Source: Natronomonas halophila (lineage in GTDB: Archaea > Halobacteriota > Halobacteria > Halobacteriales > Haloarculaceae). Taken from it: DNA of 64,000 nt. Positions 18,328 to 26,080 of the stretch are shown here, piece by piece. Within the stretch, counting starts at the first letter, position 1, and each line of letters begins with the position of its first letter. The notes beneath the pieces are model-generated. The model was not told where the DNA came from. It searched no databases and was given only the letters and a program-made list of their open reading frames with translations. The position numbers and the translations under genes were made by a program. The stretch lies in the NCBI RefSeq assembly GCF_013391085.1, contig NZ_CP058334.1, positions 868,001 through 932,000 on the forward strand, written 5' to 3'.

Positions 18328-19176
18328 TCACTCCTCGGCGGCGCGATACCGTTCCATGATGCGTTCGGCGCGGGCGATAAGCGGGGCGTCGATCATCTCG
18401 CCGTCGACGCGAAACACCCCTCGCTCCTCGTCGTCGGCCTCCTCCCGGGCGTCGAGGACGCGCTCGGCCCATTCGACATCCCCCTCGTCGGGCGTAAACG
18501 CCTCGTTGATGACCGGCACCTGCCCGGGATGGATAGCCATCTTGCCGCCGTAGCCCAGTTGGGCCGCGAAGGCCGTCTCCTCGGCCAGTCGGTCGGTGTC
18601 CTCGATATCGGTAAAGACCGTATCGATAGCGTCGATATCGGCCGCGCCTGCTGCGAGGACGACGTGCTGGCGGGCATACGAGACCTCCTCGCCGGATTCC
18701 GTGCGAGTCGCCCCGATGTCCGCCGAGAGGTCCTCGGCACCGAACGCGACCGCATCGACCGCGGGCGTGGCTGCTATCTCCTGTGCGTTGAGCACGCCGG
18801 CGGCCGACTCACACAGCGCGAACACCGGCAGGTCGTAGCCGTGTTCGCGGACCAACTCGTCCATCTCGCGGACGCCCGCCGCCGACTCGGCTTTCGGTAC
18901 CATCACCGCGTCGAGACGGGGGTCGCCGGCCAGCGCGGTTTCGAGGTCCGCATCGGCCGTCGCGGGGTCGGCGTTGACGCGGAGACACACCTCACAATCG
19001 GGGTCGAATCCCGGGTCCGTCAGGACGTCGTTGACCGCCTCGCGGGCCTGGGCCTTCCGGCCGGGGGCGACGGCGTCTTCGAGGTCGAAGACGACCGTAT
19101 CCGCGCCCGCGTTCGGGGCCTTGTGCATCAACGCCGGCTGGTCGGCAGGCGAGAAAAGTACGCTTCTGCGGGCCAT
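18328..19176 (-). CDS. HpcH/HpaI (CitE-like) CoA-ester lyase
   Basis: A 282-aa TIM-barrel protein. The start MARRSVLFSPADQPALMHKAP is the CitE family N terminus with the CoA-binding arginine. DTVVFDLEDAVAPGRK holds the metal-binding acid, and VPKAESAAGV and FGAEDLSADIG are family motifs. Near the C terminus, GKMAIHPGQVPVINEAF is diagnostic. Members cleave malyl-CoA, beta-methylmalyl-CoA or citramalyl-CoA. In haloarchaea a related enzyme serves the methylaspartate cycle. The nearby glutamate dehydrogenase and MaoC hydratase make that attractive, but mutase and ammonia-lyase genes are not present here. Confidence 0.88.
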   Translation of the reverse strand: MARRSVLFSPADQPALMHKAPNAGADTVVFDLEDAVAPGRKAQAREAVNDVLTDPGFDPDCEVCLRVNADPATADADLETALAGDPRLDAVMVPKAESAAGVREMDELVREHGYDLPVFALCESAAGVLNAQEIAATPAVDAVAFGAEDLSADIGATRTESGEEVSYARQHVVLAAGAADIDAIDTVFTDIEDTDRLAEETAFAAQLGYGGKMAIHPGQVPVINEAFTPDEGDVEWAERVLDAREEADDEERGVFRVDGEMIDAPLIARAERIMERYRAAEE

Positions 19177-19235
19177 GTCCGGAGCAACGAACGGCCGCCT
19201 TGTAAAGAATCAGGCCGAAAAGAGGGGGGTTGCGG

Positions 19236-20588
19236 TTACAGCCGCCGGCTGGCGAGCAGCGCCACCGCCAACAGCGCGAGAGCCGTTAGGACGGCGAAGG
19301 CGATGCCACCCTCACCAGCGGAGCCGTCGGGTTCGGTGGTGGCGGTGTTCTCGCTGGCGTCGGAGGCCGCGGCTTCATCCGCGCTCGCGTCATACACCTC
19401 GTAGACCGAGTACGGACTCGTCATCGAATCGTTCGCGTTGGGCGCCTCGTCGCCCAGCCGTTCCTGGCCGGAGACGGCGATGTAGTGTCTGAGGTCCTCG
19501 GTCAGTTCCGCGTTGCCGGGGCCGAGCTGGACGAGCCACACCGCATCGACCGTGAAGCTCGTCCGGTTGTCGTCGACGTCGAACGTCACGCGCACCGTCG
19601 TGTTGCCGTCGTTCTGGTTGACGTTCTGGTCGACGAGCGTGGCGTTGTGCACCTCGCTGTCGTTGACCCGGACGTTCAGGCTATCGAGGTCGAAGTCGGC
19701 CGCCTCGAGACTCGTGACGTTGATGTAGATGTCAACCTCGTCCTGCCCGGGGTCGGTGTTACTGACCTCCAGGTCGTAGATTGGCTGCTCGGTGCTCTCG
19801 ACCGTGATGTGGCCCGCGTCGGCGTCGGTGATTTCGGGGGTGTCGGGCGTTGGTGTCGGCGTCGGGGTGGGAGTCGGCGTCGCCGTGTCAGTATCGCTTC
19901 CACCGCCGCTGTCACCACCACCGCCGGAGTCGCTCTCGGTCGGCGTCGGGGTGGGTGTCGGCGTCGCCGTCGACGTAGACGACGTCTCCGTCGGCGTGGA
20001 TGTGGACGTTTCCGTCGGCGTCGACGTGGACGTTTCCGTCGGCGTCGGCGTGGATGTCGCAGTCGGCGTCGGTGTGCTCTCGGAAATCGAAAGCGTTCCA
20101 CTCGACGTATCGGATGCCGACTGCGGGTTCACGATGAACTCGATTTGGTAGTCGCCCGCGTCCGGGTTCTGGACGTCGGCGTACTCGGCGATGACGTGGT
20201 CGCCATCGGTGAGGTCGTAGGACCCACCAAGGTTGATTTCGAGCGTTTCACCGTTGTTCGACGAACTGACACCCTGTACGTCGTTGCTGACGTCGGTTTC
20301 GATGCTCCCGTCGTCGTCGGTGTCGATACCGATACGCTGGATGTCGTTCTCGCCGACGTTGCTGACGTCACCGTTCTGACCGGTGGCCTGATAATCGACG
20401 TTGAGCCCGTTCAACGACGAGCCGCCGGCGTCCGACCCGACGGACGCCACGACGGTGTGGGTCGAGGTGTCGCCAGGGGTGTCCGGTTCGGCCGTAATAG
20501 AGGCACTCGATGCGCTACCGACGAACGCGAACGTGCTCGCCACGACAAGCACGGCGAGCAGTACGCTGAGTGTTGTTTTCCGGTTCAT
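19236..20588 (-). CDS. Secreted Thr/Pro-rich surface glycoprotein with C-terminal membrane tail
   Basis: A 450-aa protein. Signal peptide about 1-29 (LSVLLAVLVVASTFAFVG). A beta-rich domain follows (~30-165), then a Thr/Pro/Ser linker (~170-255) built of repeats such as TPTETSTS and TPTPTPTP, interrupted by SDSGGGGDSGGGSD. A second beta domain (~260-390) has N-glycosylation sequons NVT, NAT, NTT and NRT. The C terminus is a tripartite anchor-like tail: acidic linker, hydrophobic helix (IAFAVLTALALLAVALLA) and SRRL. The tail looks like PGF-CTERM but lacks PGF (GEGG instead). It is likely S-layer associated or lipid anchored. Confidence 0.85.
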   Translation of the reverse strand: MNRKTTLSVLLAVLVVASTFAFVGSASSASITAEPDTPGDTSTHTVVASVGSDAGGSSLNGLNVDYQATGQNGDVSNVGENDIQRIGIDTDDDGSIETDVSNDVQGVSSSNNGETLEINLGGSYDLTDGDHVIAEYADVQNPDAGDYQIEFIVNPQSASDTSSGTLSISESTPTPTATSTPTPTETSTSTPTETSTSTPTETSSTSTATPTPTPTPTESDSGGGGDSGGGSDTDTATPTPTPTPTPTPDTPEITDADAGHITVESTEQPIYDLEVSNTDPGQDEVDIYINVTSLEAADFDLDSLNVRVNDSEVHNATLVDQNVNQNDGNTTVRVTFDVDDNRTSFTVDAVWLVQLGPGNAELTEDLRHYIAVSGQERLGDEAPNANDSMTSPYSVYEVYDASADEAAASDASENTATTEPDGSAGEGGIAFAVLTALALLAVALLASRRL

Positions 20589-20745
20589 GAATGGAAATCA
20601 CAGGGTTGGCTCCCTGAAATGTTCAACCGCACGTTATGATTGAAAAGAGACAACAGTATACGGATTAGGCCAAACAAATTAGGTATATCTTCGCTGCCCC
20701 GGCACCTCCGATATCGTTTTGCGTCTGCCCGCCGTCGGCCGGTCC

Positions 20746-21207
20746 ATGCCCGGACTGTACTACGAGGAGTTCGAGGTCGGCGAGACCATCGAACACGACA
20801 AGCGACGCACGATAAGCGAGGCCGACAATCAGCAGTTCTGCGACATGACGATGAACCAGCAACCGCTCCATCTGGACGCGGATTTCGCCGCCGACACCCA
20901 GTTCGGCGACCGGCTCGTCAACGGCCTCTACACGATGAGTCTCGCCGTCGGCCTCTCGATTCCCGATACGACGGACGGCACCATCGTCGCCAACCTCTCC
21001 TACGACAACGTCGAGCACCCCAACCCCGTCTTCCACGGCGATACCGTCTACGCACGGACCACCGTCACCGACAAGCACGAGACCTCCGACGGCGAGCGCG
21101 GCATCGTCGAGATGCACGTCGAGGCCTATAAAGCCGAATCCGACGGCGAGGATACCCTCGTCTGTGAGTTCGACCGGACCGCGCTGTCGCTGAAGAAGCC
21201 GGAGTAA
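20746..21207 (+). CDS. MaoC-family (hot-dog) acyl-CoA dehydratase
   Basis: A 153-aa single hot-dog domain. It has the R-specific hydratase 2 active-site pattern in the form DNQQFCDMTMNQQPLHLD, continuing to FGDRLVNGLYTMSLAVG, with the usual Asp/His replaced in part. Short MaoC proteins hydrate enoyl-CoA thioesters. It is divergent from the surface glycoprotein; the CitE-like lyase is close by. The full two-domain mesaconyl-CoA hydratase of the methylaspartate cycle is about twice as long, so that specific role is uncertain. The start at 20746 gives the standard PGLYYEEF N terminus. Confidence 0.85.
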   Translation: MPGLYYEEFEVGETIEHDKRRTISEADNQQFCDMTMNQQPLHLDADFAADTQFGDRLVNGLYTMSLAVGLSIPDTTDGTIVANLSYDNVEHPNPVFHGDTVYARTTVTDKHETSDGERGIVEMHVEAYKAESDGEDTLVCEFDRTALSLKKPE

Positions 21208-21257: not shown

Positions 21258-21776
21258 ATGGCCGATCCCTCCACCGGTTCGCCGTCGCTCGATTGGTTGA
21301 CGCTGGACGACGACGAGGAACTCCTGTGGTCGAGCCGTCCTCACCGGAGTAGCGTCGTCCCCGCACTCGTCGTCGGGATTCCGCTTTCCTTCGTCCTCAT
21401 CGGCATCCCCATCGTCCTCGGGGCGTATCTCACCTATCAGAACACCCACTACGTCGTCACCGACGCCGGCCTCTACAAGAAGACCGGCATCCTCTCTCGG
21501 GACGTACAGAAGATCGGCTTCGACAAGGTCCAGAACACCTCCTACAGCCAGTCGGCCGTCGGCGGCTACTTCGGCTACGGCAACGTCGACGTCTCGACGG
21601 CCGGCGGCAGCGGCGTCGAGATGCGCTTCCGGTCGGTCCCGAACCCCGCGGACGTCCAGCAGCGCATCAACAAGCGCGTCAAATCGAAGGAACCGGCGAC
21701 CGACGACAAAAGCGAGGTCCTCGAAGACGTGCTGACGGAACTCCGGGCCATCCGCGCCGAACTCGAAGAGCGATGA
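21258..21776 (+). CDS. bPH2 (PH-like) domain membrane protein 1
   Basis: A 172-aa protein. After an acidic lead with LLWSSRPHRSSV, there is a single hydrophobic hairpin (VVPALVVGIPLSFVLIGIPIVLG). The bPH2 domain follows (~68-140): NTHYVVTDAGLYKKTGIL, DKVQNTSYSQSAVGGYFGYG, and DVSTAGGSGVEMRF. The end is helical and charged (DVLTELRAIRAELEER). It is the first of a tandem pair with a 4-bp overlap and similar layout, resembling bacterial YdbS/YdbT pairs. Function unproven. Confidence 0.87.
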   Translation: MADPSTGSPSLDWLTLDDDEELLWSSRPHRSSVVPALVVGIPLSFVLIGIPIVLGAYLTYQNTHYVVTDAGLYKKTGILSRDVQKIGFDKVQNTSYSQSAVGGYFGYGNVDVSTAGGSGVEMRFRSVPNPADVQQRINKRVKSKEPATDDKSEVLEDVLTELRAIRAELEER

Positions 21777-22312
21777 CCGACGCGTGGCTGACGCCCGAAC
21801 CCGGCGAAACCGTCGAGTGGGAGGCCAGTCCACGGCTGATGCGCGCCCTCCCGGCATTCCTTATCAGCCTCGCGCTCGTCGTCGGGGCCGTCGGCGGTGC
21901 CGTCGTGGTCGACCGTCTCGCGGTCGCCGGTCTGTTCGTGGCACCGCTTCCCGGAGCGTACGCCTACCTCCGGGTCGTCAACACCCGGTTCGTGCTCACG
22001 AACCGCGCTCTGTATCGGAAGACCGGCATTCTCGGGGTCGACGTACGGACCGTCGAACTCGACCGCGTCCAGAACAGCAAATCCTCACAGGGCATTCTCG
22101 GAACCGCCTTCGGCTACGGGAGCGTCACCGTCGACGTCGCCGGCGGTTCCGACCTCCGGTATTTCGACATCTACGACCCCGACGAGGTCCGTGCGGATAT
22201 CGAACGCCTCGCTGGCGGCAGCAACGAGATCCCGGGCACCATCGAGCAGTGGCGCGAGGTCCGCGAGGAACTGCGGGCGATTCGCCGCCTGATCGATGGT
22301 CAGCCGAAATAG
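21773..22312 (+). CDS. bPH2 (PH-like) domain membrane protein 2
   Basis: A 179-aa paralogue of the preceding protein. WEASPRLMRALPAFLISLAL leads into two hydrophobic segments, then NTRFVLTNRALYRKTGILG and DRVQNSKSSQGILGTAFGYG, and the C-terminal ELRAIRRLIDGQ. The pair shares the RVQN-x-S and FGYG-x-V signatures and probably forms a hetero-oligomer. The start overlaps the upstream stop by 4 bp. Its 3' end overlaps the convergent peroxiredoxin-like gene by 13 bp. Confidence 0.86.
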   Translation: MTDAWLTPEPGETVEWEASPRLMRALPAFLISLALVVGAVGGAVVVDRLAVAGLFVAPLPGAYAYLRVVNTRFVLTNRALYRKTGILGVDVRTVELDRVQNSKSSQGILGTAFGYGSVTVDVAGGSDLRYFDIYDPDEVRADIERLAGGSNEIPGTIEQWREVREELRAIRRLIDGQPK

Positions 22313-22830
22313 GCGTCGTAGTCGACGGACACGTCCGTCTCGATGTTCGGAAACATCTCGTCGAGTACGGACGCGACGTCCGCGACCGGCGAGGGGTCCG
22401 ACCGCGCGAACGCGTCGTCGGTCGCCCACGCGAAGGCGACGTCCCAGTCCGAACCGACGAGGAAGACCGCCCGTTTCGGCGGCCCGTAGTGGCCTTCCCA
22501 CTCCTCGTGGCGGACGCCGTAGTAGTCGGCCGCGCTCCCGCCGTCGCCGAGCAGGGCCATCGGCAGGTCGTACTGGTCGGCGTAGGACGACGCCGCGTAG
22601 ATGCTATCCATCGAGATACCCCACACCCGGAGGCCGTCGGCGTCGTGCCACCCGGCGTCCCGAATCGCCGCCAGTTCCGCGGTCGCCGTCGGCAGAAACG
22701 TCGCCGGGAAGAACCACAGCAGCACGGCGTCGCCGGCCTCGATAGCCCGAAAGAGTTCGTAGACGTCCGGTTCACCCCGCTCGATGCCCGGGAGCGCGAA
22801 ATCCGGGGCTTTCTGACCCTGCTGAATCAT
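22300..22830 (-). CDS. Peroxiredoxin-like (AhpC/TSA fold) protein without cysteine
   Basis: A 176-aa thioredoxin-fold protein. The N terminus, MIQQGQKAPDFALPGIERGE, is classic Prx. The catalytic loop reads LWFFPATFLPTATAEL, whereas peroxidatic loops have P-x-x-x-T/S-x-x-C. Here the cysteine position is Ala, and the whole protein contains no cysteine. YGVRHEEWEGHYGPPKRAVFLVG corresponds to the F-x-R/K-x-VFLI strand region. It therefore cannot use thiol peroxidase chemistry; a binding or structural role is more likely. The 3' end overlaps the convergent PH gene. Confidence 0.85.
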   Translation of the reverse strand: MIQQGQKAPDFALPGIERGEPDVYELFRAIEAGDAVLLWFFPATFLPTATAELAAIRDAGWHDADGLRVWGISMDSIYAASSYADQYDLPMALLGDGGSAADYYGVRHEEWEGHYGPPKRAVFLVGSDWDVAFAWATDDAFARSDPSPVADVASVLDEMFPNIETDVSVDYDAYFG

Positions 22831-22941: not shown

Positions 22942-23445
22942 ATGTACACCACCGTCATCGACGCTGGGGCGTCGCTCGTCGCCCAGTACGGGGTTTTCGC
23001 CCTGCTGGTCGTCTTCGCCCTGGAGGGTGCGCTCGTGGGGAAGGTCATTCCCACGCGCACGCTGTTCGTCGCCGCGGTGCTGGCTATCGGCACCACGACG
23101 GCCGGGATGCTGTCGGTGGCTGCCGCCGCCGTCGCCGGCGCGACGGCCGGACAGGTAGTCCTCTTCGCGCTCGTCCGCCACACCGACGTGGCATCCGACC
23201 GGTTCGCAGGCGAGGCCACGGACGAGTCGAGTCGCGTCGCCCGCTGGTTCGACCGCTGGGGACTGTCGGCTGTCGCCCTATCGAACACCCTGCCGGTCGC
23301 TCGCGGGACGCTTACCGTTCCGGCGGCGATGACCGACGAGAACGCAGTCCGGTTTTCGGCCTCCTCGATGGTCGGCTCGTCGATCTACGCCTGTGGCCTG
23401 CTGGCGGTCGGTGGCGGTATCGAACTGCTGTTGACCATCGCGTAG
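22942..23445 (+). CDS. DedA/VTT-like membrane protein
   Basis: A 167-aa integral membrane protein with helices near 10-32, 36-60, 62-77 and a C-terminal pair. Family-type features are the re-entrant region FALEGALVGKVIPTRTLF, an internal FDRWGLSAVALSNTLPVARG (usually F/G-R-x-x-P-x-x-R in DedA) and a small-residue last helix. DedA proteins are lipid scramblases or flippases or affect proton gradients; substrate here is unknown. The gene stands alone between convergent partners. Confidence 0.75.
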   Translation: MYTTVIDAGASLVAQYGVFALLVVFALEGALVGKVIPTRTLFVAAVLAIGTTTAGMLSVAAAAVAGATAGQVVLFALVRHTDVASDRFAGEATDESSRVARWFDRWGLSAVALSNTLPVARGTLTVPAAMTDENAVRFSASSMVGSSIYACGLLAVGGGIELLLTIA

Positions 23446-24300: not shown

Positions 24301-26001
24301 TCAGAGAACGGTGCCGTGTTTCTTCGAGGGCCGGTCCTTCTCGACGTCCTCGTAGAAGCGGAACCGCGTGGCCAACTCCTCTCGCAGGCTGGACGGCGGG
24401 ATGATTTCGTCGATGACGACTTCGCTGGCCATCCGCCGGACGTCGATGTCCTCGCGGTACTCCTCGCGGAGTTCTCGTTCCTTCTCCTTGCGCTCTTCCT
24501 CGTCGTCGATTTCGGCGAGTTTGCGGGCATAAACGGCGTTGATGGCCGCCTCGGGGCCCATAATCCCGATTTCGCCGGAGGGGAGCGCGATGGTCGATTC
24601 GGGGTCGTAGGCCGGCCCGGACATGGCGTAGATACCGGCGCCGTAGGCCTTCCGGACGACGACGCTCTGTTTCGGCACCGTCGCCTCGCTGGTGGCGTAA
24701 ATCATCTTTTTGCCCTTTTCGAGGATGCCCTCCTTTTCGACCTGTGAGCCGGCCATGAAACCGGGCGTGTCACAGAGATACAGCAGCGGGATATTGTAGG
24801 CGTCACACTTCCAGACGAACTGGGCGGCCTTCTCGGCGGCATCGGGGAAGATGGCACCCGCGCGTTCGGCCGGCTGGTTGGCGACGATGCCGACCGGACT
24901 GCCGTCGAGATGGGCAAAGCCCGTCAGGATTTCGGGGCCGTAGTCGGGCTGGAGTTCGAAGAAGGAATCCCGGTCGACGACGCGGTCGATGACGTCGTGC
25001 ATGTCGTAGCCCTTGTTCGGTTCCTGCGGGATGACCGAGTCGATGCCGTTGGGCTGGTATTTCGGCGGCTTCGAGGCGACCTCGGGTGGGTCCTCGTCGC
25101 TGTTGTTCGGGAGGTACTGAACGAGTTGGGCGACCAACTCGCGGGCGTGTTCCTCGTCGCGAGCGATAAGGTCGGCACTGCCGGATTCGGTGGTGTGGAC
25201 CTTCGGACCGCCCAGCGTATCGAGGTCGATGTCCTCGCCGGTGACCATCTTCACCATCCGCGGCGAGGCGATGGCCATCGAGGACATCCCCTCGACCATG
25301 ACGGTGAAGTCGGCGAAGACGGGCGTGTAGGCGGCCCCGGCGATACACGGCCCATAGAGGACACAGATCTGCGGGACGCGACCCGAAAGCCGCGAGTGGT
25401 TGTAGTAGTACTTCCCGATGCCCTCGCGGTTGGCGAAGAAGCCGGTCTGCTGGTCGATGCGGCCGCCCGAGGAGTCCATCAGATACAGCACCGGCTTGCC
25501 CGTCTTGAGGGCGCGCTGCTGCATCCGGAGGAACTTCTCGACGCCCTTGGCGGCCATACTGCCGCGTTTGACCGTGTAGTCGTTGGCCATGAAGTGGACG
25601 TCCCGGCCCTCGAACTCCGCGCCGCCGGTGATGAGGCCGTCCGCCGGCAGTTGGTCGTCGGCGTCGAACTCCGCGAACTTGCCGTCCTCGAAGAGGAAGC
25701 CGTCGTTGAACCACAAATCGATGCGGTCCCGGACGAAGCGTTTGCCCTGCTCGGGCAGTTGTTCCTTGTACTTCTCGGGGCCGCCCGCTTCGATTGCCTC
25801 GATCTGCTCGAGGAGTTCCTCCTCGCGTTCGGTCGGGCCGAGGTCGTCCTCGATTGGCGACTGGTCGGCCTCGCTGGTCGCGGCCGGTTCGTCGGCGTCG
25901 CCGATGTAAACCTCCACGTCGGCCTCGGCGTGGGTCGCCATGGCTTGGGCGATGGCCTCGGCCTCCTCGACGCTGGCCTCTCCCGCGATGCGGACTCTCA
26001 T
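24301..26001 (-). CDS. Acyl-CoA carboxylase carboxyltransferase (propionyl/acetyl-CoA, beta subunit)
   Basis: A 566-aa carboxyltransferase with two crotonase-like halves. The N half has YLMDSSGGRIDQQTGFF and YGPCIAGAAYTPVFAD; the C half has PVGIVANQPAERAGAIFPDAAEK, LLYLCDTPGFMAG and MGPEAAINAVYARK. It moves carboxyl from biotin carrier protein to an acyl-CoA. Residues 1-60 form an extra N-terminal acidic region before the domain. Start 26001 is chosen because a TATA element (26024-26031) lies 23-30 bp upstream. The biotin carboxylase and carrier genes are not adjacent. Confidence 0.92.
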   Translation of the reverse strand: MRVRIAGEASVEEAEAIAQAMATHAEADVEVYIGDADEPAATSEADQSPIEDDLGPTEREEELLEQIEAIEAGGPEKYKEQLPEQGKRFVRDRIDLWFNDGFLFEDGKFAEFDADDQLPADGLITGGAEFEGRDVHFMANDYTVKRGSMAAKGVEKFLRMQQRALKTGKPVLYLMDSSGGRIDQQTGFFANREGIGKYYYNHSRLSGRVPQICVLYGPCIAGAAYTPVFADFTVMVEGMSSMAIASPRMVKMVTGEDIDLDTLGGPKVHTTESGSADLIARDEEHARELVAQLVQYLPNNSDEDPPEVASKPPKYQPNGIDSVIPQEPNKGYDMHDVIDRVVDRDSFFELQPDYGPEILTGFAHLDGSPVGIVANQPAERAGAIFPDAAEKAAQFVWKCDAYNIPLLYLCDTPGFMAGSQVEKEGILEKGKKMIYATSEATVPKQSVVVRKAYGAGIYAMSGPAYDPESTIALPSGEIGIMGPEAAINAVYARKLAEIDDEEERKEKERELREEYREDIDVRRMASEVVIDEIIPPSSLREELATRFRFYEDVEKDRPSKKHGTVL

Positions 26002-26023
26002 ACACCTATCGTCCAGCGTCGCC

Positions 26024-26031
26024 ACTAAACC
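26024..26031 (-). promoter_or_regulatory. TATA element of the acyl-CoA carboxylase gene
   Basis: GGTTTAGT on the reverse strand lies 23-30 bp before ATG 26001. It supports that start over an in-frame ATG 14 codons earlier. Confidence 0.5.
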
Positions 26032-26080
26032 GTTTTCCATCACCAGAAACGAACATCGTGTTCTGTGTTTATCAGTTCGT

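What the first reader, a model, noticed from the sequence alone, without database searches (positions are those of the whole stretch)
22300..22830. Peroxiredoxin fold with no cysteine
The N terminus and fold look like AhpC/TSA peroxiredoxins, but the peroxidatic position is Ala (PTATAEL) and there is no cysteine in the whole protein. The rest of the fold is intact, so it is not a decayed pseudogene. It may have become a binding protein, regulator or scaffold.
Basis: seen in the sequence. Interest (0 to 1): 0.5.

Follow-up and report, generated by a model that had tools for sequence, protein, structure and literature searches.

The report
Peroxiredoxin relatives without their catalytic cysteine
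A salt-loving archaeon keeps a protein built like a peroxide-destroying enzyme whose essential cysteine is gone, and its relatives show that the active site was dismantled step by step while the rest of the protein was preserved, so it very probably does some other job.

Summary
Window 22300-22830 (-) encodes a 176-residue AhpC/TSA-fold protein with no cysteine and Ala49 at the peroxidatic (CP) position. It is not a one-strain substitution. In Natronomonas, 17 of 20 genomes carry the orthologue and 17/17 lack CP (A10, V3, T2, G1, P1); 8/17 still keep a cysteine at the PrxQ-type resolving position 54. The gene falls in a well-supported 71-row haloarchaeal clade. In all 71 rows the Thr/Ser of the PxxxT/SxxC motif is V/L/A, against S/H/T in 56/56 other rows. 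Trp129 is present in 71/71 against 0/56. Resolving Cys is present in 9/71 against 54/56. CP is lost in 32/71 against 0/56, with 5 changes on the tree (4 if two groups share one loss). Pro42 (71/71) and Arg120 (69/71) are kept. Pairwise dN/dS (0.35) matches a CP-bearing peroxiredoxin of the same genus (0.34), so it is not a decaying pseudogene. The same genome has two more CP-less AhpC/TSA families; one has a match in 94 of 97 sampled haloarchaeal genomes. Best reading: a non-catalytic peroxiredoxin-fold protein kept for binding (partner, ligand or client). The exact function is untested. New variant of a known kind.

The parts
22300..22830 (-). CP-less peroxiredoxin-like (AhpC/TSA) gene, 176 aa, ATG start at 22830, stop codon included
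22684..22686 (-). codon 49 (GCG, Ala): the peroxidatic cysteine position; C in 56 of 56 non-clade rows, lost in 32 of 71 clade rows
22693..22695 (-). codon 46 (Leu): the Thr/Ser position of PxxxT/SxxC; V/L/A in 71 of 71 clade rows
22669..22671 (-). codon 54 (Ala): PrxQ-type resolving-Cys position (CP+5); Cys in 8 of 17 Natronomonas orthologues
22471..22473 (-). codon 120 (Arg): active-site Arg position, kept in 69 of 71 clade rows
22444..22446 (-). codon 129 (Trp): clade-diagnostic Trp, 71 of 71 in the clade and 0 of 56 outside
24301..26043 (-). acyl-CoA carboxylase carboxyltransferase-type neighbour; part of the conserved block that marks positional orthology
20719..21207 (+). MaoC-like hydratase neighbour; part of the same block

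Best explanation
The gene encodes a non-catalytic ('pseudo') peroxiredoxin. SHOWN by sequence: it descends from haloarchaeal two-Cys PrxQ-like peroxiredoxins. Its clade first lost the motif Thr/Ser (position 46) and, almost everywhere, the resolving Cys, and gained an invariant Trp129. It then lost the peroxidatic Cys in 4-5 lineages, one being the common ancestor of the sampled Natronomonas genes. The rest of the domain, including Pro42 and Arg120, stayed under purifying selection. INFERRED: without CP no thiol peroxidase cycle is possible, and because the CP residue is freely A/V/T/G/P within one genus, no new nucleophile replaced it. The protein therefore works by binding. The mechanism I commit to is a constitutive, redox-insensitive partner- or client-binding protein (holdase or scaffold), using the surface around Trp129, Trp39/Trp61 and the His114/Arg120 region. 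Peroxide removal is left to the CP-bearing peroxiredoxins of the same genome. The holdase/scaffold step is the weakest link (I would give holdase itself about 0.3).
For: Fold and homology. CP lost in 17/17 Natronomonas orthologues with no preferred replacement residue. Clade of 71 rows (100/99 support) with position 46 changed in 71/71, CP lost in 32/71, position-54 Cys in 9/71, P42 in 71/71, R120 in 69/71 and W129 in 71/71, against 0/56 changed at position 46, 0/56 CP lost, 54/56 Cys54 and 0/56 W129 in other rows. Several independent losses: 5 changes on the tree, single clade rejected (AU p 3e-65). Constraint: median dN/dS 0.347 (136 pairs) against 0.34 (105 pairs) for the CP-bearing peroxiredoxin of the same genus, which keeps CP in 15/15 loci. 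Same chromosomal block in other families, so the CP-bearing members there are positional orthologues. Other CP-bearing peroxiredoxins in the genome. Precedent read in passages: the C46S mutant of archaeal 1-Cys TkPrx loses peroxidase (<10% left) and becomes a chaperone-active dodecamer (PMC4416765).
Against: No biochemical evidence exists here. In Deinococcus PrxQ, the closer subfamily, the C60S/C65S double mutant almost lost holdase activity (PMC6590489), which speaks against a simple carry-over of PrxQ holdase. Within the clade, 39 of 71 members keep CP, and in the unnamed genus g20 28 of 34 do; these could still be weak 1-Cys peroxidases, so loss of function may be complete only in some lineages. 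dN/dS of about 0.35 (simple NG86, strong codon bias) shows constraint but not tight constraint. One near-complete Natronomonas genome (G002, 99%) lacks the gene, so it is dispensable. No partner is shown.
Confidence: 0.7

Rival explanations
1. Relaxed constraint: peroxidase function became redundant and the gene is slowly eroding; the repeated CP losses are early decay, not a new function.
For: Several independent CP losses; three of 20 genus genomes lack the gene, one of them 99% complete; dN/dS 0.35 is moderate; the CP position is variable within the genus.
Against: 57 invariant columns across 17 species. dN/dS is equal to that of the CP-bearing peroxiredoxin of the genus, 0.347 against 0.34, and lower in other CP-less groups (0.136 and 0.187). 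Full-length open frames in all 17. The clade gained and fixed Trp129, 71/71.
Confidence: 0.15
2. It is still an enzyme, with different chemistry in the old pocket (for example using Arg120, His114 or the conserved Trp/Tyr residues).
For: Pro42, Glu52, Arg120 and His114 are invariant in Natronomonas (17/17) and, Glu52 apart, nearly so in the clade. The gene sits among CoA and central-carbon enzymes.
Against: No nucleophile is conserved at position 49 (A/V/T/G/P). Glu52 is not conserved in the wider clade (32/71). No family match suggests another activity.
Confidence: 0.12
3. Low-activity 1-Cys peroxidase clade in which Cys54 or a partner's thiol took over CP's role in Natronomonas.
For: Cys54 is kept in 8 of 17 Natronomonas proteins, all without CP.
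Against: 9 of 17, including the window's own, lack Cys54 and 7 of 17 have no Cys at all. A Cys-free protein cannot run a thiol cycle. The motif Thr is lost in 71/71.
Confidence: 0.03

Closest known systems
PrxQ/BCP-type peroxiredoxins (AhpC/TSA, PF00578); nearest solved sequence 2cx3/4gqc
   Same: Same domain over residues 2-159; conserved Pro42 and Arg120; APDF-type N-terminus.
   Different: No peroxidatic Cys, no resolving Cys, no Thr/Ser at position 46; new invariant Trp129.
CP-bearing haloarchaeal two-Cys PrxQ-like proteins (e.g. L030, L076, L106)
   Same: Sister rows on the tree; share the (D)EWE.H...R region.
   Different: They keep S46, C49 and C54; not in the same gene block.
P-DUDES peroxiredoxin-like domain (SRPX, CCDC80), passages of PMC3091736
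   Same: Peroxiredoxin-like domain in which the classic peroxidatic Cys is not conserved.
   Different: Bacterial and vertebrate family with a different Cys position (CxxxxR); no direct sequence comparison made here.
1-Cys TkPrx C46S mutant (laboratory mutant), passages of PMC4416765
   Same: An archaeal peroxiredoxin without CP that is stable and chaperone-active.
   Different: Prx6-type, 216 aa, keeps two C-terminal Cys needed for oligomers; an engineered mutant, not a natural lineage.

Membership tests
Peroxiredoxin fold superfamily (AhpC/TSA, PF00578) | Profile match above curated cut-off over the domain | tested here: met
   60.6 bits against cut-off 26, residues 5-131
Peroxiredoxin enzyme | Peroxidatic cysteine | tested here: not met
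   Ala49; absent in 17/17 Natronomonas orthologues
Peroxiredoxin enzyme | PxxxT/SxxC motif Thr/Ser (motif recalled, not taken from a call) | tested here: not met
   Leu46; V/L/A in 71/71 of the clade
Peroxiredoxin enzyme | Active-site Pro and Arg | tested here: met
   Pro42 71/71 and Arg120 69/71 in the clade
PrxQ/BCP subfamily | Resolving Cys five residues after CP (not universal) | tested here: not met
   Ala54 in the window protein; Cys in 9/71 of the clade
PrxQ (NCBIfam NF053650, NF006960) | Score over the curated cut-off | tested here: not met
   33.2 bits against 260 and 32.1 against 140
Pseudoenzyme | Catalytic residue lost across orthologues while the domain is conserved under purifying selection | tested here: met
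Pseudoenzyme | Absence of enzymatic activity and a demonstrated other function | not testable with these tools
   needs purified protein

The most novel reading that the evidence does not exclude
Haloarchaea maintain a set of peroxiredoxin-fold proteins without peroxidatic cysteine as a functional class: this clade, whose active site was dismantled stepwise (motif Thr and resolving Cys first, Trp129 gained, then CP lost 4-5 times), plus a second family with a match in 94 of 97 sampled haloarchaeal genomes and a third in 23 of 97. They would be constitutive, redox-independent binding proteins or chaperones of the high-salt cytoplasm, this one tied to the acyl-CoA/central-carbon block in which it sits.
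Probability: 0.3. Interest if true: 0.65.

Novelty: new variant of a known kind. Interest (0 to 1): 0.5.

Why it matters
Peroxiredoxins are defined by one cysteine. A natural series of positional orthologues, from canonical C/C relatives through Thr-less CP-bearing members to members with no cysteine at all, is a ready-made experiment on what the fold does besides peroxide chemistry, and on the order in which an active site is lost. It also warns against annotating 'peroxiredoxin' or 'redoxin' from a profile match: three of the nine AhpC/TSA matches in this genome have been shown here to lack CP. The near-universal CP-less haloarchaeal family found on the way is a good deletion target in model haloarchaea.

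Tried and rejected
Rejected: selenocysteine or recoding at position 49 (codon GCG); single-strain substitution (17/17 lack CP); pseudogene; a sharp functional link to the adjacent carboxyltransferase. The carboxyltransferase link is weak because the whole block (GDH, CitE-like, MaoC, carboxyltransferase, FBPase, aldolase, HADH, acyl-CoA dehydrogenase) travels together: two or more of its genes lie within the fetched stretch in 12 of 19 clade regions (6 of 6 Natronomonas, 6 of 13 others) and in 0 of 1 canonical-paralogue region. Two of these 20 stretches are only about 10 kb (L149, L159) because the contig ends. I first thought of the methylaspartate cycle (paper search); the neighbours' NCBIfam hits do not single it out, so I dropped it.

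Led nowhere: AlphaFold2 on the three sequences allowed (mean pLDDT 49.5), so no fold search was run on it; the viral-contig scan found no relative. Paper searches for natural CP-less peroxiredoxins gave nothing directly on point in open-access PMC (listings seen). PMC2757866, PMC7278568, PMC3514251 and PMC6617597 were checked by term only.

Limits of the counts: relatives were taken from the top matches of a profile made of CP-less Natronomonas proteins (292 genomes, E <= 1e-20; the matches listed after about 94 bits were not fetched), so the share of CP-less rows is not an unbiased frequency. From 144 extracted proteins I left out 6 duplicates of loci already held and 9 identical rows, giving 129; L004 and L005 did not match the profile. 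L006 and L007 were kept apart, giving 71 clade rows and 56 others. The careful tree used the 71 plus 8 of 15 listed outgroup rows; the quick tree had 102 rows, after dropping rows under 104 bits (own-genome L002, L003, L006, L007 kept) and six long (about 290 aa) rows. Treating Natronomonas and the Ile-bearing group as one clade is not rejected (AU p 0.18), so the number of CP losses is 4 or 5.

Full report
WHAT IS THERE. Window 22300-22830, minus strand, encodes 176 residues without a single cysteine. The protein is a clear AhpC/TSA homologue: PF00578 at 60.6 bits against a cut-off of 26. Its best PDB sequence match is a bacterioferritin comigratory protein/thiol peroxidase at E 1.4e-19 over residues 2-150, and a 30-row profile reaches 8e-34 over residues 2-159. 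NCBIfam PrxQ models are hit only far below their cut-offs. Ala49 (codon GCG) is at the peroxidatic position and Leu46 at the motif Thr/Ser position. A three-sequence AlphaFold2 model was too poor to use (mean pLDDT 49.5).

NOT A STRAIN QUIRK. Of 20 Natronomonas genomes searched, the window's own included, 17 carry the orthologue at 65-100% identity; G002 (99% complete), G012 and G014 do not. In all 17 the CP residue is not Cys: A10, V3, T2, G1, P1. Position 46 is L16 V1. Pro42, Glu52, His114 and Arg120 are 17/17. The PrxQ-type resolving position 54 is Cys in 8 of 17, and 7 of 17 proteins have no Cys anywhere. 57 columns are invariant.

A CLADE THAT DISMANTLED ITS ACTIVE SITE. I collected 129 haloarchaeal relatives. 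A careful ML tree, with columns 46, 49 and 54 masked, puts the window protein in a 71-row clade (100/99) apart from CP-bearing two-Cys relatives. In the clade position 46 is V45 L17 A9; in the 56 other rows it is S34 H19 T3. CP is lost in 32/71 against 0/56. Cys54 is present in 9/71 against 54/56. Pro42 is 71/71 and Arg120 69/71. Trp129 is 71/71 against 0/56. Position 46 changed in every clade row and CP in under half, so the motif Thr/Ser and nearly always the resolving Cys went first (inference from the tree). CP changes state 5 times on the tree: Natronomonas; an Ile-bearing group of six rows; L035+L044; L033; and a six-row Ser/Thr group inside genus g20, where 28 other rows keep Cys. Holding all CP-less rows as one clade is rejected (AU p 3e-65); holding Natronomonas with the Ile group is not (p 0.18), so 4 or 5 losses. 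The relatives were chosen by similarity to a CP-less profile, so these fractions are not population frequencies.

UNDER SELECTION. Pairwise NG86 dN/dS within Natronomonas has a median of 0.347 (136 pairs). A CP-bearing peroxiredoxin of the same genus, which keeps CP in 15 of 15 loci, gives 0.34 (105 pairs). The g2 Ile group gives 0.136 and the g20 Ser/Thr group 0.187; the 28 CP-bearing g20 rows give 0.347. These are simple estimates on codon-biased genes; the point is the equality with the control. The protein is constrained like a working relative.

SURROUNDINGS. The gene is monocistronic-looking. It overlaps the stop end of a convergent tandem bPH_2 pair (21258-22312) by 13 bases and is divergent from a VTT-domain gene at 22942. 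It lies in a block of GDH, CitE-like, MaoC, carboxyltransferase, FBPase, aldolase, HADH and acyl-CoA dehydrogenase genes. Two or more block genes recur within the fetched stretch in 12 of 19 clade regions (6 of 6 Natronomonas, 6 of 13 others) and in 0 of 1 canonical-paralogue region. CP-bearing members in unnamed families f4, f6 and f16 sit in the same block, so they are positional orthologues and CP was lost in place. The two regions read from the Ile group lack the block.

OTHER FAMILIES IN THE SAME GENOME. The genome has nine AhpC/TSA matches. Two others lack CP. One family (G000:C1:1249712-1250224) is found in 20/20 Natronomonas and 94/97 sampled genomes of the order; its CP column is A40 S4 T2 in the 46 sequences read, inside a motif MDGxFPATYxW. 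The other (G000:C1:416564-417037) is found in 16/20 and 23/97; its CP column is A31 T3 S1 D1 in 36 read, with a nearly invariant SAI..NWW region and a conserved Cys17. Both score over the PF00578 cut-off. CP-bearing peroxiredoxins are also present (L001, L002, L003).

HOW IT MOST LIKELY WORKS. Without CP there is no thiol peroxidase cycle (established enzymology). Free variation at position 49 argues against a new nucleophile there. What is kept is the domain, the Pro/Arg shell and a set of Trp residues, one of them new and clade-wide. I therefore commit to a binding role that needs no redox switch: partner scaffold or holdase. Precedent for: TkPrx C46S lost peroxidase and gained chaperone activity (passages of PMC4416765). 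Precedent against: the Cys double mutant of Deinococcus PrxQ nearly lost its holdase activity (passages of PMC6590489). The step from 'non-catalytic and conserved' (loss of CP and constraint shown, loss of activity inferred) to 'binds a partner or client' (inferred) is untested.

NOVELTY. Peroxiredoxin-like domains lacking the classic Cys are on record, for example P-DUDES (passages of PMC3091736). My searches of open-access PMC found no description of a CP-less haloarchaeal peroxiredoxin family; most subscription journals and all preprints lie outside that library. I rate it a new variant of a known kind (pseudoenzyme of the peroxiredoxin fold), interest 0.5.

Noticed in passing
L006/L187 (G000:C1:1249712-1250224, outside the window): A second AhpC/TSA family without CP, motif MDGxFPATYxW; 20/20 Natronomonas and 94/97 sampled order genomes have a match; 0 of 46 sequences read have Cys at CP and 39 of 46 have no Cys. 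A near-core haloarchaeal protein of unknown role.
   Followed up: partly
L007/L207 (G000:C1:416564-417037, outside the window): A third CP-less AhpC/TSA family with an SAI..NWW region and a conserved Cys17; 16/20 Natronomonas, 23/97 order genomes.
   Followed up: partly
L111, L112, L114, L115, L120, L121 and similar: CP-bearing haloarchaeal relatives of about 290 aa, roughly twice the usual length, suggesting an added or duplicated domain.
   Followed up: no
window 21258-22312 (+): Two tandem bPH_2 proteins whose second stop overlaps the stop end of the peroxiredoxin-like gene by 13 bases; kept next to it in several Natronomonas.
   Followed up: no
window 18328-21207: CitE-like and MaoC-like genes whose best or near-best NCBIfam models include RipC and RipB of itaconate degradation, all below cut-off.
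   Followed up: no
G000:C1:932848-933198 (just beyond the window end): A ninth AhpC/TSA match in the genome, not fetched or examined.
   Followed up: no
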